Made by a program: the position numbers and the translations under genes. The notes under the pieces were generated by a model that saw only the letters and a program-made list of their open reading frames with translations, was not told the origin of the DNA and did not search any database. From IMG/VR virus record IMGVR_UViG_3300048446_000526, positions 23,413 to 87,412 of that record: a stretch of 64,000 bases of DNA; one strand, given 5' to 3'. Of this stretch, positions 3,601 through 49,974 are shown in pieces. Each line of letters begins with the position of its first letter. The stretch's first letter is position 1. This stretch comes from a virus.

Positions 3601-6600
3601 AAAAGGAGAGTTTGCCAGATACTTTAAGGAAAACGCACAAAATAAAAGCATAGGAGGAGCAATACAAAGATTTGCTACCGGAGGCAGAGTAAATGATAAA
3701 GCAGGACTGAAGATTAAAACTACCGGAGGAAGCACAATCACTTCTACTTTTGAAGAAGGCCAAACTAGTTCTGGAGAAGTGGTGGCACAGAATATAGGCA
3801 AAAATTTATTTTCTGTTGTTGCTGCTCAGGCATCAGGTGGTGGAGGAAGGGCTTTATACGATGCTGCTATGAAACAAGCGACAAGACAAGGAGGAAGTTT
3901 GGTTTCAGATAGAAGCAGAGTTAGTTCATCGGCCTTAAATCGTATTTGGAATACATACTATGGTACGGGTAAGAGTAAAACAGGCCAGAGAGTTGGCAGG
4001 CAACCTGTACCAGAAGACATGCTTTATACAGGTGCGTTCTTTAAAGATTCAGATTTTCCAAGCCCTGATCCTTCAACATGGCAAGGTAAGGCAGTGTCTT
4101 TGCAGTATGCATATCAACAATTTGCAGATGGTGGAGCAGCATCAGGAGGAGATACGGTTCCTGCTATGTTGACTCCCGGCGAATATGTTATTAATAAAAA
4201 AGCAGCAAAACAAATTGGTTTACCCAAACTTAACCAAATGAATTATGCTGATAGGATTAAGGGATATGCAACAGGCGGGCCTGTTGGTCCGGTGCAGTAC
4301 TTTAACAATGGAGGATCACCTGCTTCCGGTTCTGCTCCTGCCAGCAATCCTTGGGTAACTGCCGCAAAGATTAATTTGACTGCTGCGAAACTTAATCAAA
4401 AAAACGCAACAACTAATAGTAAGACAGCGGCTACAAACGGGCAAGCAGCAAATACAACCTCGAACAGCGTAAACAATATTCCTAAAGAAATGGGTATTGG
4501 AGCAAGACTTGCTTTCGGGCTCATAGGCCCGCTTATTGAACAAGCAATCGTAAAAATAGCACCAAATAGTGCTATTGCTGCTGGTGCTGGAGAAGGTATT
4601 AGTCAGGGTATTGTGGCTTCTTCAACGTCTAAAGAACTTCTTGGTGGTTTAAGTGGAGCGGCAAAACTTGCCGCTGGAAGGTTTGGAAAGTTTGGAAAAC
4701 TTTTAGTTACTAGTGGGAAATTTTTAGAGAAATGGACCGGGACAATTACAACAGGAATAGGCCTCTTCGCTGGTTTTAACGGGTTCCTTAGTGGTCAATT
4801 AAACAAAAGTATAGAACTATTAGCCCTAAGAACCACTGAAGCAGGAAAAGCGGCAGAAGAGGCATTTGCAGGTCTACCGGGAGTAATAGCAAAAATTGGT
4901 ACTAACGCAGAAGACTACAATGCCATATTATCAGACGGTGGTGCAAAACTAGCAGATATGATTACAGCAGCAGAAGCACAGAGACAAAAATCCCAACAAA
5001 AAAACCAAGGAGGATATTTTGGTGCAGCATTTAGAGGTCTTGGACTTGAAAGTGAGGAAGGCAGAGAAATTAGAGAGGCTCAAGGAAGAGACATAGACAG
5101 AGAAGCATTTAGGGCAGCAGGTGATTTAGCAACCAAGCAACTGCTGGCGATTGTTTCATCGGGCGACAGCGTAGAAGAGGCATTTGGGGGCAACAAAGTC
5201 GCTTTGGATAGTTTCAAGAGAGCCATAGCACTTACTGATCTTGCATATCAAAAAGAAGAGAGAAGATTACAGGATTTAATTAATAAGGCTGGAGCACAGT
5301 CGGCAGCAGGTCAAGCCTATACAGAAGAACTTAGAAAGGCTCGTGAGGATGCTTTCAAAAAAAGAGCAGCCGATGTTGACGCAGCAATAGCATCCCAAAA
5401 ACTCAAGAAAGAAATAGAGGAGCAAAGAAAGGCTTTAAATTTAGCAACAGTAGCCATTGCAAACTATACCATAGCCTATAACAAGGGTGCTGACCAAGCA
5501 GCATTTGCGTTTAAAAAACTGGCTAAGTCAGCAGATCGTATGGCTGAAGGACTCAGTGGAACTGATCCAAGTCAATTATTTGCTGATAACATCAATGTTA
5601 TACAAAACCCTGAACTCTTTAATCAAACAGACAACACGCTCGCTCTTGAACCTCTGAAAAATATATTAGGAGGTAATCGAGATGCTATTCAGGCATTTAC
5701 AACTCTTCCCGCTGAAATTGCAGGAGCACTGCAAAGAGCCGTTAATCAAAACCCTGAAAACAATGCACAAGGTGCTGCAATCATACAAGGTGAAATAGAC
5801 CAAGTTCTCGCTGATAAGTTTGGTAGCAATAGTCTGTTCGCTAGGACACTGAGCAATAGCATAAAAGGTTTAATAGCAGAAGCACAAGGAAATCAAGATG
5901 GTGAATTTAATGCAGCAGCATTGATCAAAGGCACTACGGAGATTATAGAAAAGTTTGGTGAAGATGTTAAAAAAGGTTTAGTAAAAAGTTTAGAAACCAT
6001 TCAAGAGGCATTCGGAAAATTAGCACAATCTTCTGCTAGACTTTTCCAAGCACAAAACAATTATGCTAATGCGGTCAGGAATAGTGTTACAAGTCAATTA
6101 AAACTTAATCAAGAGATTAAGGAGGCATTATCAGAAGTTCGTCAACCTAGAAGTATATCTTCAATAAATGATACAAGTGGTGTTTCTCAACAACAAGTTA
6201 GTAATGCTGGGGACTATTTCCAGCAGTTGGCTATTATACAGCAGGAGCAAACCAGACTCAATGTAGAGCAAGTCAGGCTGACACAAGAAGGCATAGACAA
6301 AGACGGTGAAAACGCCACAGAAATCGCTACTGCTATAGGAGCCAACGAAGCAGCCCTAGCAAACCTAAATGCTAATACCAAGAATTTACAAGCCGCTTTA
6401 CAAGATAAATTAGGTCAACTTCAAAGTGAACTAGGAAGTAGACTAGCAGACCTGAAAGCGGAACAAGCAGCAGCAGAAAGTATTTTTGAAAGCCTGTTAA
6501 AGGATGAAGGAGATACTAATCAAGGCATATCAAGGGCGTTGCAGGTAGCAAGCGGTCAGGGCGTTGGTAATCTTACCGGAGACGAGGCTATTCGTGTATT

Positions 6601-9600
6601 GAAAGATATTAAGCAGTTGCAGGCTGCTGGTATTATAGAAAACAATAAAGAGACAAGAGAAAATGTAGTAGGGGTTCTTGGTGAATCAAGAGGACTTGGT
6701 AATTTTACTGGCTTAGGACAAGAAATTATAGATAAGATTATTAATGCACCGGGAGAGGATGATCAGGTTAAGGCCTATGTAGCAGAAATACAAAGAACTA
6801 ATATTGCTATTAATCAACTTACATCTGCTTTGGCTTTCACAGAATTTAGCAATGCCTCCAAAGCATTGAATATTTCACAGGACGCACTAAGAGTTTCTAT
6901 AACAACACTTAACGATACTATAAAGTCGGAAATAGGTAAAATTAAAGCCAACGGAGGACAAGACGTAGAAGGGATTACTAATGAACCAGAAACAAAAGCA
7001 AAAGGAGGTTTAATTTATCGTTCAAGCGGTGGTGGTACACAAAAGGGAGTAAATTGGCAACCTAGAGGAACAGACACTATTCCAGCAATGCTCACTCCGG
7101 GTGAATTTGTAGTAAATGCAAAAGCCACATCGCAAAATAGAGGTCTTCTTGAGTCTATAAACAGATCGTCTGGTGGTCCTGTATCACCTGCTAGAAAAAG
7201 TACTGGAGGTATTCTTTACAGAAATGCTGGAGGAGGCACTGATAGTTCTTCAACAGAGAGTGTTGGATCAATACTTGATGGACTTAATGCAAAGCAGATA
7301 TTAAATCTCTTGAAAGAAGCAGACTTTATGAAAGAAGGGGGTGCGTTGAACAGCATTAGAGATTGGACATCCAATACAGCAAGTGCCGTTAAGTCAGCCA
7401 TAACCAAAAGAGCAAGCGGAGTTTATGGAGGTTTTAAGAATTTTGGAAAAATTAAAATTCCTACATGGATGGATGACGCAGTTAAAAACGGCCTTTTAAG
7501 TGAAGATGTAGTAGCAGGTTTAGCCGATAAACCATATGCGGTTACTAAATTCCTTAGAGGAAAAATAGATTCTCTTACTGCTGGCCCAGTTGCACAACGA
7601 ATAGGACAATTTACTGGTGGGGCTTACAAGTTTGCAAGTAATAAACTAGGCTTACTGGCTCAATCTAAGTGGATTAAAAATATTCTAGGTCCAGCAAAGA
7701 GTGTTCTTAAATATATTCCGAAACTTGGCTCATTCCTTGGTAATTCTCCTGCTTCAAGTCTTGCAAGCAAAGGACTTGCGTGGGCAGGTCTTGTTGAGCA
7801 TATGATATCAGGTGCTTATGCAGGAGTTAATAGAAGTCAAGATTTGCAAGATTCGGGAGTTAGTCCTTTGTCGTTTCAAGGAATAATGTCTCCTTTGGCT
7901 GAATTTCTTGCAGGAGGAACCGCTGACGGTGCTTTGCCTCCAAACGCAACAAAAGAGCAAAAGGCAGCATGGATGGAAGGAACCAAGAACGGAAAAATTC
8001 CTCGATACAATTCGGCTAGTTTTCAGGCATGGGGAACCGCAAGTCTAAGTAATCTACTTAGAATGGTTGGAGGAATGGGTACTGGTTTTACTCTTGCTGC
8101 TCAATATGCCCCAGCGGCAATGCCTTATTCGGGAATGATTGGTGCTGCTGTTGGAGGCGGCATAGTTGTTGCTGGTCAAACTTTCCGAACCCTTGAAGAA
8201 ATCGCTGGTCTTTGGGGAGATCAACCAGACCTTGCTCAAACAAGAAGACAAGAACAACAAAATGAAGACTCGAAGCAAAGTTTCGTTGGCGACACTAAAG
8301 ACCAACTACCGGTTCTTGGTGACTTGCAATACAACAGGGCTGTCTTTGCAGGACAAAAGAGAGGAAAACTCAAAAAATATGAGAATGATAAAGCCAGATG
8401 GAAAGAGGTTGAAAAACAAGGTGCAGCAGTTAAAGTTAATGATGTAGATGCGTGGGCTTACGTAAAAAGTAAATATGAAGCCGGTTTACAATCGCATAAG
8501 TTTGATGTAGAAGATGGTAAATTTTTAAGAAACCTTATTCCTGTAAAACAGCAAGGTTATCTGTGGGATCAATATAGCGACGAAGATATACAAAAAGCCT
8601 ATACCGCTGTTATGCTGGCTTCAGAAGAGAAGTGGAAAGACTTACCTCTCATAACATCCCTTAATCCTAATAAGAATATTAATTTAACTTATGGTGATAA
8701 TATTAAAAACTTGAGGGCTGTTGCAGAAAGCACACAAACAAGATTATTTGGAGACGGTGAGGATAGACCAGCAGATGAAAATTATTTTGAAGGAGATGAT
8801 AAGTTAAGAAGTATTATGGCTCAAAAGGGCGAATTGTATAATGCGAATGCCTCTTGGTTGGAAACATATGTTGGTAGCGAAACAAATCAAGATAAAAGCG
8901 AAATGGATTTCTTAGATTACGAATCTAGTAACTTCACTAAGATATCAGAATACAATAAGGCAATAAAGGCTAGGAGAGCAGAACTTATTCAAGAAGAGAA
9001 GGATAGGCGAATTGCAGAAGCAGAGACAAAGAAGGCAGCAGAAGACAAGCAAAACGAAGAAGTCAGAAAGTTCGGAGGACTACAACAGAATTTACAGTCT
9101 CTTACATCAGCAGAAAATCCCGACTTTGAGTTTATGCCACAGGCTCCATTTATTAAGCCTAAATCAAGGTTGATACTTCAGCGGCAAAAAGATAGTTTGG
9201 CAATGAGACAGAAACTTGCAGAGACACCTGTATTTTACCCAGATGAAAACGATAATCTTGTACAAGGACCACCAATGGGTGAGTACTTAGATTGGAAGAC
9301 AGGTGCGTTTACAGATAAGCCTGAGTTAATTAAAACTAAAAGCGAATATGATTTCTGGTCAGGAATTGGTAATGCTATAGTAGAATACAGAAAAAATTAC
9401 AGAGTCGGTGGTGACCTGTATGATGTGCTTCCTACAGTCCATCCATCTCAGGCTATATTAAAAGACATTGCTGGTGGCACTCAAAGTGAGCAAATTGCTT
9501 TTAGAAACTTTATGAATCCAAAAGCAACAGACGCTAAAACTTCAACCGCTGGTGCTTTTCAAGAGTTGTTCACAGATTATCCTACAGAATTTGCGAATAT

Positions 9601-42663: not shown

Positions 42664-43050
42664 CTAAAACGCTGCTACTTCACCTGTTGAGGTTTGTTGT
42701 TGCTGCTGAGTGCCATTGCGAGACAACTTGGTAATCTTGGAGAAATTGTTTACTCTGACCTTCAGAGTGTTGTGTTTTACTCCATCCTTTTCCCACGAAT
42801 CATTCCTCAATGATCCTTCTACCATCACAAGGTCGCCCTTCTGAAAAGAAGCACCGATAATCTCTGCACCAGTATCCCATGCTTCACAAGGAACAAATGT
42901 GGTAATCTTATCCTTTTCGCCGTTAGACTTTGTATATTCGCGTGAAACAGCAATGGTAAAGTTAACAACAGAAGTACTTTTACCATTTGTGTTCACCTTG
43001 CGAACATCAGGGTCTCGGGCCAAATTACCTCGTAAAATATTAATATTCAT
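42664..43050 (-). CDS. ssb: Single-stranded DNA-binding protein
   Basis: At 128 residues this is a bacterial-type SSB with an OB fold. It coats single-stranded DNA at the fork and in recombination. The fold shows MNINILRGNLARDPDVR, FTIAVSREY, TTFVPCEAW, FQKGDLVMVEGSL and LKVRVNNF. A poly-Gln linker follows and the end is TGEVAAF. The usual acidic tip D-D-D-I-P-F is reduced to a single Glu and final Phe, so partner recruitment by the tip may be weak. It starts with AGGAG spaced well, behind its own promoter. Confidence 0.93.
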   Translation of the reverse strand: MNINILRGNLARDPDVRKVNTNGKSTSVVNFTIAVSREYTKSNGEKDKITTFVPCEAWDTGAEIIGASFQKGDLVMVEGSLRNDSWEKDGVKHNTLKVRVNNFSKITKLSRNGTQQQQQTSTGEVAAF

Positions 43051-43124: not shown

Positions 43125-44741
43125 CTAATTCTTTGGAAGATACGCTTTTTCTACAATAAGACTATCTCCATCCCTATTTTTACTGCCTTGTACTACAATA
43201 ATATTATTCTCAAACAAAATACTGCTATAAGCGGCATATTGCTCTGGAAAAAATACTATACCATCTATAGAACCGCTACTGTCGCTGCCCTCTAGAAAGG
43301 CCATTTTTGAGCCGGGATTCTTGCCTTTTTTAGTCTTAATTACACTGACATTATCTATCTGTATAGCGACGACAATATCATTGCGAAGACAGTTATTAAA
43401 ATCTCTACATATTATGTTGGTCATTGATACGTCATACATATCGACCTTACTGCATGTTATACTACAACCTAAACATTCTTCTTCTTTGTCTGCAATCCAT
43501 TCTGGACTGTCAACAAGTGCATATGGAGGGTTGTTAATACTTTGTATAAATGCCTCTAATTTATCTTTTCTGCGGCTGCTCATTCTCGGCTTACCGATAA
43601 CACAATTAATGATGTCTATCAGAGTTCCGTTGTCTAGACAGTTCTCTACCGCATATTCTAGTTCTTTGGCTGTAAGATTAGATACTATTTCGTATTCAAA
43701 TAGCATCTTGGTTCTGCTAATACCATAAAAGTCTAAAGCACCACATTGTATAAGTGCTTTTACAGCAGTACTGGTGATATTAGTAAGCACTTTTGTGACC
43801 ATCTGATACCACGACAGTTCTTCTAGCATGATGTTTTTATCGTCAATAAGTTTGATTAATTTCTTGTACATGGATGAGCCGAACCCTTTTACATCCGTAA
43901 GACCGAAATATATCTTCTTTTCATGGAGTACAAAAAATTCATTTAATACTCTAATATCTGGTAGATGTACGGTGATGTCCATTTGACTAGCGTTTTGTAC
44001 AAGTTGTTTGATCTCTACCTTGGGGTCAATCTTATCTTTAGCAAAGCGTAGATATGACGCAAAGAATACCCTAGGGAAGTGAGCCTTTGTGTATGCAGAC
44101 AGATAAGCATTCATGGCATAGGATACAGCATGGCTTTTGTTAAAACTGTATCTCTGGCTTTTTTCGATCCATCCGAATATCTCTTCTGACTGTTCTTTTG
44201 TGACTAATTTAAGTTTTGCAGAACCGGAGATGAACTTCTTTTTTAGTTTCGCCATTTCCTCTGGCTTCTTTTTACCGATTGCTTTACGCAGATTATCTGC
44301 TTCCTGCAAGTCAAAGCCTGCAACTTCTTTTGCAATCTGCATAGCCTGTTCCTGATAAATCATTTCACCGTATGTAGTTTTCAGAGATGGCTCTAGAGTA
44401 GGATGGTAGTAGTCTACCGACTCAAAACCATTTTTCCTATCAATATAGTGATTACTGACATTCTTACCATCACGATAAGCCTGCAAGCATCCCGGTCGCA
44501 GAATGCTAATCAAAGCACTTAACTGTTCAATATTTTCTGGCTTTAGTTTCTTAGACATGGTTCTACCAAGTCTAGACTCCAACTGGAAGCAACCTTTTGT
44601 GTTACCTTCAGATATTAAGTCCCAAGTTTTCTGGCAATCCAAAGGTATATCTTGGTTAACCGGATCAAAGTCTACTGAAGTTTTACCGTCTTTTTCTACG
44701 GCATCAAAACAACAGCCACAATTAAATTTTAATACTGTCAT
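43125..44741 (-). CDS. dnaE: DNA polymerase III alpha, C-terminal half (fingers, clamp-binding region, OB)
   Basis: At 538 residues this is the second part of a split DnaE. After a unique start (MTVLKFNCGCCFDAVEKDG), it carries IPLDCQKTWDLISEGNTKGCFQLES, which in intact DnaE follows the last catalytic Asp. The fingers have YQEQAMQIAKEVAGFDLQEADNLRKAIGKKK and FNKSHAVSYAMNAYL. A helix-hairpin-helix region (VKGFGSSMYKKLIKLI) and a C-terminal OB domain (DIVVAIQIDNVSVIKTKKG, IVFFPEQY) follow. It has no PHP domain and no catalytic D-x-D, so it can work only with the N-terminal half. The start overlaps the exonuclease stop as ATGA. No intein motifs are seen. Confidence 0.9.
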   Translation of the reverse strand: MTVLKFNCGCCFDAVEKDGKTSVDFDPVNQDIPLDCQKTWDLISEGNTKGCFQLESRLGRTMSKKLKPENIEQLSALISILRPGCLQAYRDGKNVSNHYIDRKNGFESVDYYHPTLEPSLKTTYGEMIYQEQAMQIAKEVAGFDLQEADNLRKAIGKKKPEEMAKLKKKFISGSAKLKLVTKEQSEEIFGWIEKSQRYSFNKSHAVSYAMNAYLSAYTKAHFPRVFFASYLRFAKDKIDPKVEIKQLVQNASQMDITVHLPDIRVLNEFFVLHEKKIYFGLTDVKGFGSSMYKKLIKLIDDKNIMLEELSWYQMVTKVLTNITSTAVKALIQCGALDFYGISRTKMLFEYEIVSNLTAKELEYAVENCLDNGTLIDIINCVIGKPRMSSRRKDKLEAFIQSINNPPYALVDSPEWIADKEEECLGCSITCSKVDMYDVSMTNIICRDFNNCLRNDIVVAIQIDNVSVIKTKKGKNPGSKMAFLEGSDSSGSIDGIVFFPEQYAAYSSILFENNIIVVQGSKNRDGDSLIVEKAYLPKN

Positions 44742-45430
44742 GCTGTAAATGCGTCCTTAAATGTAATCTTCTTAGCCAAATTCCTATGCAGCCTCATAAA
44801 TCTTGTCAGAATTGCTGCTGTGTCCTTAACGTCTTTGATAGCATCATGAGCACCATCTTTATCTATACCCATGTAATCACGCAGATTATCTAGAGTGTAA
44901 CTTTTTAGGTCTGCGTTGTGCTCAAACCAGTAGAATACAAGGTTGAGCATGTCTACCACATCTCTTGGATAAAAAATCTTGCTGTTACCTTCTTTATTTG
45001 TGTCACCATACTTTTTTGCCATTCTCTGAATGATAGGTAGATCAAATCTGTATATGTTATAGCCTGCTGCAATCGGAGCAGTAAACTGGCTCTGTTTCTT
45101 TGATCTCATATGGTATTTCTCCAGATATCCTGTGAACATATCCCATGATTGTTCTTGCGTAGGATACTTTTGCCATTCAGCACGAACATCTTCCTTGGAA
45201 CATCCTTTGACCTTGGCATGAAAATCTAAGATGTCTGTCTTATATTCATAGTCAGGGTCTTTTTCCATACACTCTGGTTTAAAGTTAGCATTAAACTCCG
45301 AGTTAGGTATAATCTCAAGACTGACAGGATCAACCATTACTGCGGCAATCTGCACCGGACTGCACTTAATTGGGTTCACCCCGTCTGTCTCAAAATCAAA
45401 CACACAAATCTTATTATAGTTAATAGCCAT
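44738..45430 (-). CDS. DnaQ-like 3'-5' exonuclease (DEDDh)
   Basis: At 230 residues this is a probable proofreading subunit for the phage polymerase. The DEDDh site is complete: D12-F-E14 in ICVFDFETDG, D130 in YNIYRFDLPI, and H195 with D200 in GAHDAIKDVKDT. Its length fits epsilon without extra domains. It lies between the two halves of DnaE and overlaps the second by 4 bases, a strong hint that the three act as one polymerase core. A typical clamp-binding motif was not seen. Confidence 0.88.
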   Translation of the reverse strand: MAINYNKICVFDFETDGVNPIKCSPVQIAAVMVDPVSLEIIPNSEFNANFKPECMEKDPDYEYKTDILDFHAKVKGCSKEDVRAEWQKYPTQEQSWDMFTGYLEKYHMRSKKQSQFTAPIAAGYNIYRFDLPIIQRMAKKYGDTNKEGNSKIFYPRDVVDMLNLVFYWFEHNADLKSYTLDNLRDYMGIDKDGAHDAIKDVKDTAAILTRFMRLHRNLAKKITFKDAFTA

Positions 45431-45459
45431 AAAAATCCTGTTCTAAATCCTAGTATTAA

Positions 45460-45654
45460 TTATTGTTTAATAACTTTTGTTAAAGGTTTCATTCCCTGCG
45501 TATAGCCGGGACCAACAGCCTTAGCATTTTTGTAAGAGCAGCAACTTTTTCTCACTTCTCTAATTTTTTCAAAAACCTGAGAAGGTTGACCGTCTATTAC
45601 AAATTTGTCACCAATTTGCAAATGACGAAACTCCGTTACTTCTTGTTCTGACAT
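45460..45654 (-). CDS. Small conserved-looking phage protein (64 aa)
   Basis: This is a short protein with FRHLQIGDKFVIDGQPSQVFEKI near the start and a C-x-x-Y with NAKAVGPGYTQ later. A G-D-K-F-x-x-D-G beginning followed by K-I and a CCS/NA stretch recurs in small phage proteins of unknown function. It has its own near-perfect promoter and a GGAG ribosome site. It may be the first gene of a transcript that also carries the exonuclease and the polymerase C-half. Confidence 0.6.
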   Translation of the reverse strand: MSEQEVTEFRHLQIGDKFVIDGQPSQVFEKIREVRKSCCSYKNAKAVGPGYTQGMKPLTKVIKQ

Positions 45655-45678
45655 AATTCATCTCCATAGTTATAGTTT

Positions 45679-45707
45679 ATTATACCCGATAGTATATACA
45701 CCGTCAA
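45679..45707 (-). promoter_or_regulatory. Sigma70-type promoter inside the polymerase N-half stop
   Basis: On the - strand, TTGACG (45702-45707), a 17-base spacer and TATAAT (45679-45684). The TGA of the -35 is the stop codon of the polymerase N-half gene. A start near 45672 would serve the 64-residue gene, exonuclease and polymerase C-half, independently of the N-half. Confidence 0.8.
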
Positions 45708-47575
45708 GCCCCTTGCTTCATAAGATCGCTGATACACATGATCTTATCTAGCATAGCAACACCTAGAATATCTAATTTAATCATACCAAGACTTTCCAAA
45801 TCAGTCATTTCCATACCTGCAATGACTTGTTTATTCTTGCTGTCATAAACCATAGGACAGATACCAGCCAAAGGCTCCGCACTAACGGCTATACCAGCAG
45901 CATGTTTTGATTGTACTGACTTGGTTCCTTCTAGCCTCATGGCTTGTTCAAATCTTTTTGACAATGGCCCCTCAAGTTCGCCATCTTTACCGATGTGACA
46001 CCACTGTTTTAGTTTTTCAGCATCATTCTCTAATGCCCATCTAATAATAGAAGAGTCTCCTGTGGCTTCTTTCATTTCTTGTAAGTCATCTGCTACTTTA
46101 GATTCTTCAGGGATATTTCTTGTGATATCGTTCATTTCTTCAAACGTAATACCTCCAAACACCCTGAGCACATCTTTCAACGCACCACGACCTTTGATTG
46201 TGCCAAACGTAATCATCTGTGACACTTTGTCATCTCCATAAGTATCACGAATATATTGTATAACTTGCTCACGTTTGTCAATAGGCACATCTACGTCAAT
46301 ATCAGGCATAGACGTATGTTCTGCTGTATTTCTACCAGCATTATAAAATCTATCAAAGATAAGACCGTACTTAATAGGATCAATAGTGGTAATACCAATT
46401 AGGTAAGAAACCAAACACCCTGCTGCACTTCCTCGTCCCGGTCCCGGTAGCCATTTATTATCACGCACATGATTGACTATATCTTGTACAATCAGAAAGT
46501 AACTAGAAAGGTCTGCACCTTGCAATACACTTAGTTCATACTTGATTCTATCTACATATTGTCCATGTTGTTCTTTTGGTATATAATCCGCTATTTTATC
46601 TCTCCACCCATCCCTGCATAGTTGACGCAAATACTCTGCATCATCTATGGCTTCTGGACAGGGAAAAGGTGGCAAATTTGGCTTACTGAGAATATCATAT
46701 TCTTCGCACATATCTGCGACAAAGTTTGTATTTGCTAGTTCTTCTTCTGTATGTAGTGCTGCCATCTCTTCTTGATCAAGAATGTGAAAGTTGTCAGACT
46801 TAAAAAACGCATCTAGTCCTACAGACTCATTGTTCTGTATCTTCCTATTTACCTCTGAGAAGGTGGTTTTTAAATTGTTACACAACAGCACCCTTTGGTC
46901 AACAGCGTCAGTCTTACGGCAATAGTGAGCGTCAGGAGTGGCTACAATTTTGTTTCCTGTAATTTTTGCCAGTTCTCTGATGCAGTCTGTGAGTTTGTCC
47001 TGCAAAGGTATATTTTCATGGTCCATTAACTGTGCTTCTAAAAAGAAATTTTCTTTACCAAATATATGATTAAGTTTGCTGACTAGTCTAGTGCCGACAT
47101 TTTTCCAATCAGGGTTGATGTCGTCTCCTACCACTAGATGTCTAGCCAGCGTAGAACCTAAGTGACCACAGATGCCTATAATGTTGCCATCAATAAACTG
47201 AGACAGGGTGTCTAAGTCAAGTCTAGGCTTGCGGTAAAAATGTTCTGGCAAGTTGGCTTCAGAAGTTAACCTGATAAGTTTTTTCCATCCGTCAAAGTTT
47301 TTAGCAAGCAAAAGAAAGTGACTGAGTTTTGCATTCTCTTTGTCTTTTATTTTTGCATCTTGTTCGCACACATATATTTCTTGGCCCAAGATTGGCTTGA
47401 TATCGTTTTTACGCATCTCTGAGTAAAACTTGATAGCACCAGCAATATTACCGTGATCTGTTAATGCACATGATGTCGCACCGATCTCTAAGCATCTTGA
47501 GGCCATATCTGCTGGTTTGCTCATGCCATCCAGCAGGCTATACATACTATGACAATGTAAAGGTTGATAATTCAT
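45704..47575 (-). CDS. dnaE: DNA polymerase III alpha, N-terminal half (PHP and palm)
   Basis: At 623 residues this is the first part of a split DnaE. The PHP domain shows H7-C-H9, TDHGNIAGAIKFY, ILGQEIYV, ICGHLGS and ATPDAHYC, which looks like a full metal-binding set rather than the degraded one of E. coli. The palm has PGPGRGSAAGCLVSYL and the D-x-D in MPDIDVDVPIDKREQ near 424-428. The third catalytic Asp lies in MIKLDILGVAMLDKI near 602. The chain stops 20 residues later, just before the region that begins the C-half gene. GGGAG precedes the start. All catalytic Asp residues are here; fingers and DNA-binding parts are in the other gene. Confidence 0.93.
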   Translation of the reverse strand: MNYQPLHCHSMYSLLDGMSKPADMASRCLEIGATSCALTDHGNIAGAIKFYSEMRKNDIKPILGQEIYVCEQDAKIKDKENAKLSHFLLLAKNFDGWKKLIRLTSEANLPEHFYRKPRLDLDTLSQFIDGNIIGICGHLGSTLARHLVVGDDINPDWKNVGTRLVSKLNHIFGKENFFLEAQLMDHENIPLQDKLTDCIRELAKITGNKIVATPDAHYCRKTDAVDQRVLLCNNLKTTFSEVNRKIQNNESVGLDAFFKSDNFHILDQEEMAALHTEEELANTNFVADMCEEYDILSKPNLPPFPCPEAIDDAEYLRQLCRDGWRDKIADYIPKEQHGQYVDRIKYELSVLQGADLSSYFLIVQDIVNHVRDNKWLPGPGRGSAAGCLVSYLIGITTIDPIKYGLIFDRFYNAGRNTAEHTSMPDIDVDVPIDKREQVIQYIRDTYGDDKVSQMITFGTIKGRGALKDVLRVFGGITFEEMNDITRNIPEESKVADDLQEMKEATGDSSIIRWALENDAEKLKQWCHIGKDGELEGPLSKRFEQAMRLEGTKSVQSKHAAGIAVSAEPLAGICPMVYDSKNKQVIAGMEMTDLESLGMIKLDILGVAMLDKIMCISDLMKQGA

Positions 47576-47824: not shown

Positions 47825-47852
47825 ATTGTAACACATTCTTACTGGTTGTCAA
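47825..47852 (-). promoter_or_regulatory. Sigma70-type promoter before the polymerase operon
   Basis: On the - strand, TTGACA (47847-47852), a 16-base spacer and TACAAT (47825-47830). The TGA stop of the upstream nuclease gene lies inside the -35. A start near 47818 would transcribe the 67-residue membrane gene and the polymerase N-half. Confidence 0.8.
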
Positions 47853-48892
47853 GTAGAACCCGGAGCACGATATTTTGCTACATTGTAACCTTCTACCTGA
47901 TAGACCTTAACGGTATCATCCATACCATTCATGCGAATGTCATGTTTAATCTGTTCGCACATAGTCATTTCCTCTCCAACTTCCGTTTCTTGATCTTCTC
48001 TGTATTCTATCATAGGCTGATGTTTAGTTCCTGCAAATGACTTTTTGCCGAAATCACAAAGTTTAGTGCATTTCCAAGACTTTTTAAGCCTTGGCACTTT
48101 ACAGTTTTTAATTTCTTCAAATCTTGCACGTAACATCATCTCCACCTTAAATAGGTCTGGTTTATCAAAGCACAATGAGAATATACCACCATCGTTGATA
48201 AAATTAATTGTAACAATAATATTCTTTATATCAGGATACAAATGCTGTATTGCATAATAATACAACATTAGTTGTGGGTCTCGTTGTAATTTTGCTATTG
48301 TTTTTTCTTGTCCTGTAGCCCAATCAAGTCTACGACCTGTTTTATAGTCGGTAATTTCGTATGTGTCATCATCGACTTTTGTAATCAGGTCAATCGTTCC
48401 TTTAATAGCAAGTTGTCCTTGCACACGTTCTCCGTTGGGGTCTACAAAATCATAGTGAGCCCAAGGCTTATCTATAGCAATATCAAATCTTTGTTCAGGC
48501 TGAATGATGTGTTGATTCCTAGGGTCAAGCATACCATTGTTCTGCTCTAAACATTTTTGTATCCATTTTCTACAATCCCGGTAGTCTACATCTGTCCATC
48601 TGTGATGAGTAAAAGCACTGGTATAATAGTCATAGACTTTTTGTGTTAAGTCGTCTATACTATAATTATGCACATTTACATATCCTACAATGTCATCTTC
48701 AAAACTACCTTCTTTATTTTGTAGTGCTAGTTGCACAAAAGCGAGTATCTCCATGACCTTATGTACAATAGTACCCTTGTCAGCCTTTTTGTTTGAATCG
48801 CCGTTGTAACCCAACACATACTGAAAGAAGTATTGTTGTGGACACATAGACCATGTGCCATAGGAACTACTTCTCAAATACGCTATATCCAT
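47849..48892 (-). CDS. RecB/Cas4-like PD-(D/E)XK nuclease
   Basis: At 347 residues this belongs to the PDDEXK_1/Cas4-AddB group. It has SSYGTWSMCPQQYFFQYVLGY at the start, H44 in GTIVHKVMEIL, D168 in AIKGTIDLI, and D182-Y-K184 in ITDYKTGR. Cysteines C17, C275, C279 and C312 are placed as in relatives that bind a 4Fe-4S cluster, so a cluster is possible. It should cut or resect DNA ends. It sits between the pseudopilin and the polymerase genes, with GGAG before the start. An equivalent of a recombination exonuclease fits the RecA found upstream. Confidence 0.8.
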   Translation of the reverse strand: MDIAYLRSSSYGTWSMCPQQYFFQYVLGYNGDSNKKADKGTIVHKVMEILAFVQLALQNKEGSFEDDIVGYVNVHNYSIDDLTQKVYDYYTSAFTHHRWTDVDYRDCRKWIQKCLEQNNGMLDPRNQHIIQPEQRFDIAIDKPWAHYDFVDPNGERVQGQLAIKGTIDLITKVDDDTYEITDYKTGRRLDWATGQEKTIAKLQRDPQLMLYYYAIQHLYPDIKNIIVTINFINDGGIFSLCFDKPDLFKVEMMLRARFEEIKNCKVPRLKKSWKCTKLCDFGKKSFAGTKHQPMIEYREDQETEVGEEMTMCEQIKHDIRMNGMDDTVKVYQVEGYNVAKYRAPGST

Positions 48893-48900
48893 ATAATCTC

Positions 48901-49974
48901 CTATCGAGTGAAAACTCCACCGTCTCTTGAAAGCATAAGTTTATCCCATGCAGACAGAGCATTAGGGGCTGTACTAGGCAGCACCTCGATGTCGTCATTA
49001 ATAAAATGCGTTGACCCATCAACAAATACCACACCGACACCGCCGGGATGCAGGCTCCTAGAAGTCGCTTCATTATTGGTGTTATCAAAGCAACTCATAC
49101 CTTGTTTATTCATGTCATAACTTTGTTTTAAGTTGTTGCAATTCACAATATTGTCTGCACCTGACGCTGTATTTGCATTAGGCCCAGCAGCGTCTAGGCT
49201 GACTCCATCATAAGTTAAACCGCCATGACCCCATAACGCACTGCCACCAGCACCAGCCATAGCCCAACAACCTCTAGAGTCACGCTCATCAATACCTGCA
49301 CGAACTTCTGCCAACAGACAAGTGTTGCTTGTACCATCACTGATATGTGCGAAGGTACTGCTAACTCCGTAACCCATAACACCTCTTAGCATAGGGTCTT
49401 GCCAGTTTTTGCCTCCGTTACCAAGAGCATTTAGTGGAGGATGCAAGGTAAGAGAAAACATACCTAGGCCTGCATTTGCAGCATAGTTGCCTCTAGCCCA
49501 GTTGTCACCCCACTGTGCTGAACGTGGAGTAGAAGTACCGTTGAATGGAACTCTATTGTATGGGTCACTAGCACAGAGCATCACGCTCAGTTCTGTAGAA
49601 CGCAATGCTTCATTGCTTGGTGCTGCTACAGTAAATCTGGAATCACTCTCATCATGGAGGGCTTTCACCGTAGTACCTTCCATATAATCCAACAAATCAA
49701 TTACCCAGTTTTTAGTTCTAGTATATGAACCAATACCGTCTGGTGGCAAGGTAGGATCGTTGGAACTAATTTTGTGACTAGCATATGGAAATCTACCATA
49801 AGCAGACTCATAGTTGTGACAGGCTAATCCTAGTTGTTTCATGTTGTTGCTACACGCCATACGACGAGCAGCCTCTCTTGCTTGCTGCACAGCAGGCAAT
49901 AGCATACCGACAAGAACGCCGATGATAGCGATAACAACAAGTAGTTCGATTAAAGTAAATGCTTTCTTATTCAT
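48901..49974 (-). CDS. DUF1559-type pseudopilin (planctomycete family)
   Basis: At 357 residues, this has the N-terminal class III signal MNKKA-FTLIELLVVIAIIG, with predicted prepilin-peptidase cleavage after A5 and Glu at +5. It continues MLLPAVQQAREAARR and the C-S-N-N-x-K-Q-L-G-L-A-x-H-N-Y-E stretch, and closes with H309-x9-D319-G320. These are the marks of DUF1559/SBP_bac_10-like secretion pilins, which are expanded in Planctomycetota and rare elsewhere. A 4-base ATGA overlap with the dNMP kinase shows it is a resident phage gene. Role unknown: it may compete with host pilins, form a surface structure, or block superinfection. Confidence 0.9.
   Translation of the reverse strand: MNKKAFTLIELLVVIAIIGVLVGMLLPAVQQAREAARRMACSNNMKQLGLACHNYESAYGRFPYASHKISSNDPTLPPDGIGSYTRTKNWVIDLLDYMEGTTVKALHDESDSRFTVAAPSNEALRSTELSVMLCASDPYNRVPFNGTSTPRSAQWGDNWARGNYAANAGLGMFSLTLHPPLNALGNGGKNWQDPMLRGVMGYGVSSTFAHISDGTSNTCLLAEVRAGIDERDSRGCWAMAGAGGSALWGHGGLTYDGVSLDAAGPNANTASGADNIVNCNNLKQSYDMNKQGMSCFDNTNNEATSRSLHPGGVGVVFVDGSTHFINDDIEVLPSTAPNALSAWDKLMLSRDGGVFTR

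What the first reader, a model, noticed from the sequence alone, without database searches (positions are those of the whole stretch)
43125..47575. Split DnaE with a proofreading exonuclease gene between the halves
The N-half holds PHP, palm and all three catalytic Asp sites. The C-half holds fingers, helix-hairpin-helix and OB parts. Between them lie a 64-residue gene and a DEDDh exonuclease that overlaps the C-half. Both halves have their own starts and no intein residues are seen, so the enzyme must assemble from two chains, giving a two-chain alpha plus epsilon core. Split alpha without an intein is unusual.
Basis: partly seen in the sequence, partly recalled or inferred. Interest (0 to 1): 0.85.

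Follow-up and report, generated by a model that had tools for sequence, protein, structure and literature searches.

The report
Two-chain phage DNA polymerase III
A large, uncultured group of phages makes its only detected DNA-copying enzyme as two separate proteins with a proofreading enzyme encoded between them and no sign of the self-splicing elements that usually rejoin split polymerases, so the two chains most likely just fit together into one working enzyme.

Summary
Window 43125-47575 (- strand) encodes a DnaE-type Pol III alpha in two chains: N-half 623 aa (PHP, palm, all three catalytic Asp) and C-half 538 aa (fingers, HhH, OB). Between them lie a 64-aa ORF and a DEDDh exonuclease whose stop overlaps the C-half start (ATGA). 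It is not a local oddity. About 280 fetched loci (78 lineages below ~82% identity) carry the same break at the palm/fingers junction, always with the exonuclease. No locus has intein sequence at this break, although some relatives carry genuine split inteins at other sites of the same gene. Both halves are under strong purifying selection. Twenty records of up to 230 kb hold no PolA, PolB or intact Pol III alpha. One lineage has the halves in one chain and nests inside the split clade (re-fusion likely, not proven). The best reading is an obligate non-covalent two-chain replicase with a co-translated proofreader. No interface was predicted for the two separate chains; that remains inference. 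Intein-less split polymerases are known (T4-like gp43A/B; a minimal split Pol III alpha in PolB-bearing jumbo phages), so this is a new variant. A full PHP-containing replicase split this way was not found in the literature searched.

The parts
45704..47575 (-). N-half of DnaE-type Pol III alpha, 623 aa: PHP domain (nine ligand positions H7,H9,D16,H41,E66,H86,H138,D215,H217 present), palm with GPGRGS motif and catalytic D425, D427, D602; ends 21 aa after D602
45679..45707 (-). sigma-70-like promoter TTGACG-N17-TATAAT overlapping the N-half stop; both hexamers kept in L002 and L008 while the spacer differs; would transcribe 64-aa gene, exonuclease and C-half apart from the N-half
   Evidence: not general in the clade
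45460..45654 (-). 64-aa ORF (KSCC...NA...PLxxV type small protein); poorly constrained (dN/dS 0.2-0.6) and replaced by unrelated genes in other subclades
44738..45430 (-). DEDDh 3'-5' exonuclease (epsilon/DnaQ-like), 230 aa, with conserved C-terminal tail RLHRNLxxKIxFKDxF; found in all 78 non-redundant split lineages
44738..44741 (-). ATGA overlap of exonuclease stop and C-half start (translational coupling)
43125..44741 (-). C-half of Pol III alpha, 538 aa: fingers (13-176), helix-hairpin-helix (256-345), OB (470-524); alone it folds confidently in AlphaFold2 (pLDDT 92.7, pTM 0.85)
44634..44741 (-). N-terminal extension of the C-half (res 1-36): predicted three-stranded hairpin with C8-G-C10, then C36; 61 of 61 lineages with the CxC also have the Cys at 36

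Best explanation
This is the replicative DNA polymerase of a large clade of uncultured phages: a DnaE-type Pol III alpha that works as an obligate non-covalent heterodimer. The N chain carries PHP, palm and the catalytic aspartates; the C chain carries the nucleotide- and DNA-gripping fingers, HhH and OB parts. They dock at the palm/fingers boundary so that the active site is completed across two chains. The DEDDh exonuclease encoded directly 5' of, and translationally coupled to, the C chain is the proofreading subunit. Shown: gene anatomy, conserved split site, absence of intein or intron at it, selection on both halves, universal exonuclease partner, no second polymerase detected. Inferred: assembly without covalent joining, polymerase activity, exonuclease binding, and the origin (probably insertion of the exonuclease cassette into an ancestral dnaE).
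For: Same split in 267 clean + 13 further-broken loci of 353 fetched, 78 lineages at <82% N identity. All 25 split rows sit in one fully supported clade against bacterial and other phage DnaE (again). N-half tail beyond the domain median 2 aa. Genuine split inteins at GPGRG|C...HN|S in relatives serve as an internal control for what an intein would look like. dN/dS 0.016-0.063 for both halves. Catalytic and fingers residues invariant. No PolA, PolB or beta clamp, and one split Pol III alpha (two in one record) in 20 records up to 230 kb. C-half alone folds at pLDDT 92.7 and matches DnaE. A natural single-chain relative (L112, 46% identical N-half) folds as full DnaE (pTM 0.74; TM 0.82 on E. 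coli alpha 2hnh). Exonuclease present in all split lineages, usually overlapping the C-half start.
Against: No complex was predicted and no activity measured; docking of the two separate chains is inferred from the single-chain fold. The polymerase search covers records that may be incomplete. The exonuclease is assigned to this polymerase by synteny and motif only. No cultured member of the clade was found in the phage collection (best hits about 35% identity).
Confidence: 0.85

Rival explanations
1. The halves are joined covalently after all, by an unrecognised split intein or by RNA trans-splicing, giving an ordinary one-chain DnaE.
For: Split inteins do occur in relatives of this very gene at other sites, with nuclease inserts; the C-half begins MTVLKFN-C, and an N before a C could remind one of a C-intein end.
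Against: No N-intein: the N-half stops 0-16 aa after the domain in all 280 loci. No Hint/intein hit in the window halves. The Cys motif is CGC..C36 with a predicted hairpin and is missing in a subclade that is still split. The exonuclease reading frame runs into the C-half start in most loci, leaving no room for intron sequence; Rfam finds none.
Confidence: 0.05
2. The polymerase is decaying or has been turned into something else: the N-half and C-half act separately (for example PHP nuclease and DNA-binding protein) and the phage uses the host polymerase.
For: PHP ligands are lost in part of the clade; phages can rely on host polymerases.
Against: Catalytic aspartates and fingers residues are invariant, dN/dS is 0.016-0.063, both halves and the exonuclease always occur together in fixed order, and a single-chain version exists in the clade.
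Confidence: 0.06
3. Assembly or sequencing error, or strain-specific frameshift.
For: Single metagenomic record.
Against: About 280 fetched loci with the same boundary and intact genes between.
Confidence: 0.01
4. On history only: the single-chain lineage (L110/L112) never split and is sister to a purely split clade, so there was one split and no re-fusion.
For: Holding all split rows together costs 17-21 lnL and AU p is only 0.048 and 0.068.
Against: In both trees the single-chain lineage nests inside split lineages; in one it joins L245/L250/L264 at a starred fork.
Confidence: 0.25

Closest known systems
Minimal split DNA polymerase III alpha of group 2.2 jumbo phages (Iyer et al. 2021, PMC7824862)
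   Same: C-family catalytic alpha in two standalone phage proteins, no intein reported
   Different: That form is a minimal NTase/template-binding core without other Pol III domains, its two genes are far apart, and it accompanies a family B polymerase. Here alpha is full-length with PHP, HhH and OB, the genes are adjacent with an exonuclease between, and no PolB or PolA is found
Split gp43A/gp43B PolB of T4-like Aeromonas phages 25 and 44RR; split NrdA of Aeh1; split topoisomerase of T4 (reviewed in PMC2988022)
   Same: Essential phage replication enzyme made as two chains that assemble without splicing; 43A and 43B co-purify and have polymerase activity
   Different: Family B not C; inserted DNA is a homing endonuclease or untranslated spacer, in few phages; here the insert holds the proofreading exonuclease and the split is fixed across a large clade
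Cyanobacterial split DnaE with split intein (Caspi et al. 2003, cited in PMC3919608)
   Same: dnaE in two genes
   Different: Those halves are trans-spliced by an intein; no intein here
Fractured genes with split inteins and a homing endonuclease (Dassa et al. 2009, as cited in PMC6892783); split PolB with intein of phage MIJ3
   Same: Broken polymerase gene with another gene in the break
   Different: Relatives such as L024, L048 and L155-L158 do show that arrangement at GPGRG|S; the palm/fingers break does not
E. coli Pol III core (alpha, epsilon)
   Same: Same alpha domains and an epsilon-like DEDDh exonuclease
   Different: alpha is one chain; dnaQ is not inside dnaE; the C-half here ends at the OB region

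Membership tests
C-family (DnaE-type) DNA polymerase III alpha | PHP, palm (pol-beta fold), fingers, HhH, OB in order | tested here: met
   Pfam and PHROG matches over two chains; structure search of the C-half and of a single-chain relative
C-family (DnaE-type) DNA polymerase III alpha | three catalytic Asp and GS motif | tested here: met
   D425, D427, D602 and GRGS invariant in 14 relatives
C-family (DnaE-type) DNA polymerase III alpha | single polypeptide (usual, not strictly defining) | tested here: not met
   two ORFs in about 280 loci
DEDDh exonuclease (epsilon-like) | D-E-D-H-D active site | tested here: met
   79-80 of 80 sequences; RNase_T 5.8e-11
DEDDh exonuclease (epsilon-like) | binds alpha and proofreads | not testable with these tools
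   synteny only
Split-intein DnaE | N-intein at the end of the first chain and C-intein at the start of the second | tested here: not met
   positive control in relatives
Minimal split Pol III alpha of group 2.2 jumbo phages | only catalytic and template-binding core, no PHP | tested here: not met
   PHP, HhH and OB present
Minimal split Pol III alpha of group 2.2 jumbo phages | coexists with PolB | tested here: not met
   0 of 20 records
Intein-less split phage replication enzymes (T4-like gp43A/B type) | two chains, no splicing element, other DNA in the break | tested here: met
Intein-less split phage replication enzymes (T4-like gp43A/B type) | two chains co-purify and are active | not testable with these tools
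   needs bench work

The most novel reading that the evidence does not exclude
A large clade of phages replicates with an obligate two-chain C-family replicase: the active site is completed across a palm chain and a fingers chain, the proofreader is co-translated with the fingers chain, and in this phage's subclade the two parts have separate promoters so that core assembly can be set by chain ratio. The CGC..C hairpin at the start of the fingers chain is an added docking or metal-binding element, and one lineage has re-fused the gene.
Probability: 0.5. Interest if true: 0.75.

Novelty: new variant of a known kind. Interest (0 to 1): 0.62.

Why it matters
Bacterial replicative alpha subunits are treated as one chain that only inteins ever divide. 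A clade in which the only detected replicase has stayed in two unspliced chains gives a ready split point at the palm/fingers boundary for taking the enzyme apart, for testing how alpha, its PHP domain and epsilon assemble, and for asking why a phage would keep the parts separate. The same gene family also carries split inteins at other sites and a single-chain lineage, so splitting, trans-splicing and probable re-fusion of one enzyme can be compared side by side.

Tried and rejected
Intein at the split: rejected. Group I/II intron or other RNA element: none in the window region or in 8 loci. Ribosomal bypass or readthrough: rejected because 0.66-4.6 kb of complete genes intervene. The 64-aa gene as a conserved third subunit: rejected, since it is weakly constrained and other subclades carry unrelated genes there, e.g. 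sequences that look like uracil-DNA glycosylases in L228 and L235 (recognised by eye). General conservation of the promoter at the N-half stop: rejected; it is specific to the window, L002 and L008. A cysteine or histidine partner in the N-half for CGC..C: no specific one; the columns that differ are mostly PHP ligands and follow phylogeny. Mixed alignment of N- and C-halves for folding: misaligned and discarded (A3). Co-evolution contact analysis across the halves was not run: too few diverse pairs (about 80) for 1160 columns.

Full report
What is there. On the - strand, in order of transcription: a PD-(D/E)XK nuclease (47849-48892), a 67-aa ORF, the N-half (45704-47575), a 64-aa ORF (45460-45654), a DEDDh exonuclease (44738-45430), the C-half (43125-44741) and an SSB (42664-43050). 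The window is bases 23413-87412 of an 87.4-kb virus record. The surrounding module holds a DnaB-like helicase, a Toprim primase, a UvsX-like recombinase, a PhoH-like protein, ribonucleotide reductase and dNTP enzymes, i.e. a phage replication module.

The two halves. The N-half matches PHP and the Pol III alpha catalytic domain and ends 21 residues after the third catalytic Asp; the C-half matches fingers, HhH and, weakly, OB. Together they cover positions 42-1070 of the 1190-position phage DNA polymerase family phrog_405 almost without overlap (42-615 and 610-1070). Against solved structures the N-half alignment ends at Taq alpha residue 625 and the C-half alignment begins at 638, so the break is in the link between palm and fingers. 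The nine PHP ligand positions are filled, with His at the place where the Taq sequence shows Cys (read off the alignment), so PHP may be active too; part of the clade has lost these residues.

It is a clade-wide trait. Scans of IMG/VR and GTDB with the window proteins and alignments gave, with annotated records, 353 loci. Profile searches class 267 as cleanly split, 13 as split with further breaks, 43 as single-chain (mostly bacterial or other phage DnaE) and 28 as partial; some loci come from the same contig. The N chain runs only 0-16 residues past its domain (median 2), and the gap to the C-half domain is 657-4614 nt, mostly about 880. After removing near-copies 78 split lineages remain. 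The exonuclease is present in all of them and lies directly 5' of the C-half in most, often with a -4 or -8 nt overlap; some loci carry extra genes between exonuclease and C-half. The small gene before it varies by subclade.

No splicing. Some relatives do carry real split inteins in this gene: at GPGRG|S of the N-half (CFLPDSR... and ...GVHN|S) with a nuclease-like ORF between, and at FNK|S of the C-half with a LAGLIDADG ORF. They show what an intein looks like here; the palm/fingers break has nothing of the kind in any locus. Rfam finds no intron.

Function is kept. Catalytic and fingers residues are invariant. dN/dS against L002 and L008 is 0.016-0.042 (N), 0.031-0.063 (C), 0.028-0.070 (exonuclease) but 0.2-0.6 for the 64-aa ORF (simple counting, dS partly saturated). 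Twenty records of 87-230 kb have no PolA, no PolB, no beta clamp and one split Pol III alpha each (two copies in one); the records may be incomplete. That the host clamp is used is inference.

Structure. The window C-half alone folds with pLDDT 92.7 and pTM 0.85, and its nearest solved structures are Pol III alpha. Its first 23 residues form a confident three-stranded hairpin carrying CGC; 61 of 61 lineages with CxC/CxxC also have Cys36, against 5 of 16 without it (lineages are related, so a simple p-value overstates). The natural single-chain relative L112 (1132 aa) folds with pLDDT 82.9 and pTM 0.74 and aligns with TM 0.82 (target-normalised) to the E. coli alpha core 2hnh over 973 columns. 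This shows what the two halves build when linked; it does not by itself show that separate chains dock.

History. In two trees all split lineages share one well-supported stem. The single-chain lineage L110/L112 (order exonuclease, then fused N:C) nests inside them, which would mean one split and one re-fusion, but the AU test is borderline (p 0.048 and 0.068). How the split arose is inference: insertion of the exonuclease cassette into dnaE is the simplest story.

Expression. In the window, L002 and L008 a near-consensus sigma-70 promoter (TTGACG-N16/17-TATAAT) overlaps the N-half stop while its spacer differs, so the 64-aa gene, exonuclease and C-half could be transcribed apart from the N-half. 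It is not general in the clade.

Known or new. Intein-less two-chain phage enzymes are known: gp43A/B of phage 25 co-purify and have polymerase activity (PMC2988022), and Iyer et al. 2021 describe a minimal split Pol III alpha in PolB-bearing jumbo phages (PMC7824862). A survey of bacterial C-family polymerases mentions only intein-split DnaE (PMC3919608); a 2026 survey gave no passage on a split C-family enzyme (PMC12926913). I found no paper on a full-length, PHP-containing, intein-less two-chain alpha; the library holds open-licence papers only. I therefore rate it a new variant of a known kind.

Noticed in passing
window 48901-49974 (-): A DUF1559 (PF07596) protein with a prepilin-type N-terminus sits between replication genes; the family is, from general knowledge, typical of Planctomycetota, hinting at a planctomycete host. 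Of 20 related records only this one and its closest relative (L002's record, two copies) have it.
   Followed up: partly
L024 3981-7114, L048 4059-7122, L127, L155, L156, L323: Split intein at GPGRG|S of the N-half with a nuclease-like ORF between the intein halves, so in the palm/fingers-split members the polymerase is encoded in three or more pieces.
   Followed up: partly
L155 8669-11641; L146 3634-6021; L122 13700-15853; L176 4293-6584: Further inteins in the C-half: split intein with LAGLIDADG ORF at FNK|S (L155) and cis inteins at RPG|C (L146, L122) or in the FN|S region (L176, in a Phycisphaerales MAG).
   Followed up: no
L174 1861-4935: N-half broken just before MPDIDID with a LAGLIDADG ORF in the gap; no intein seen and no Rfam intron hit.
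   Followed up: partly
L196 (Bacillus phage Jayan PQ299153) 4986-8393: A cultured phage whose DnaE is broken at another site, just before MDIDTD, with a 77-aa ORF between; mechanism unknown.
   Followed up: partly
L257's record (G011), 53291 and 199351: One 206-kb record carries two Pol III alpha N-halves.
   Followed up: no
subclade lacking the CGC motif (L094, L096, L108, L245 and others): PHP metal-ligand histidines are often lost in this subclade while the exonuclease is kept.
   Followed up: no
window - strand: Eleven near-consensus TTGACA-N16/17-TATAAT sites (at least 11 of 12 matches) lie on the - strand and none on the + strand, against about 1.6 expected per strand in shuffles.
   Followed up: partly
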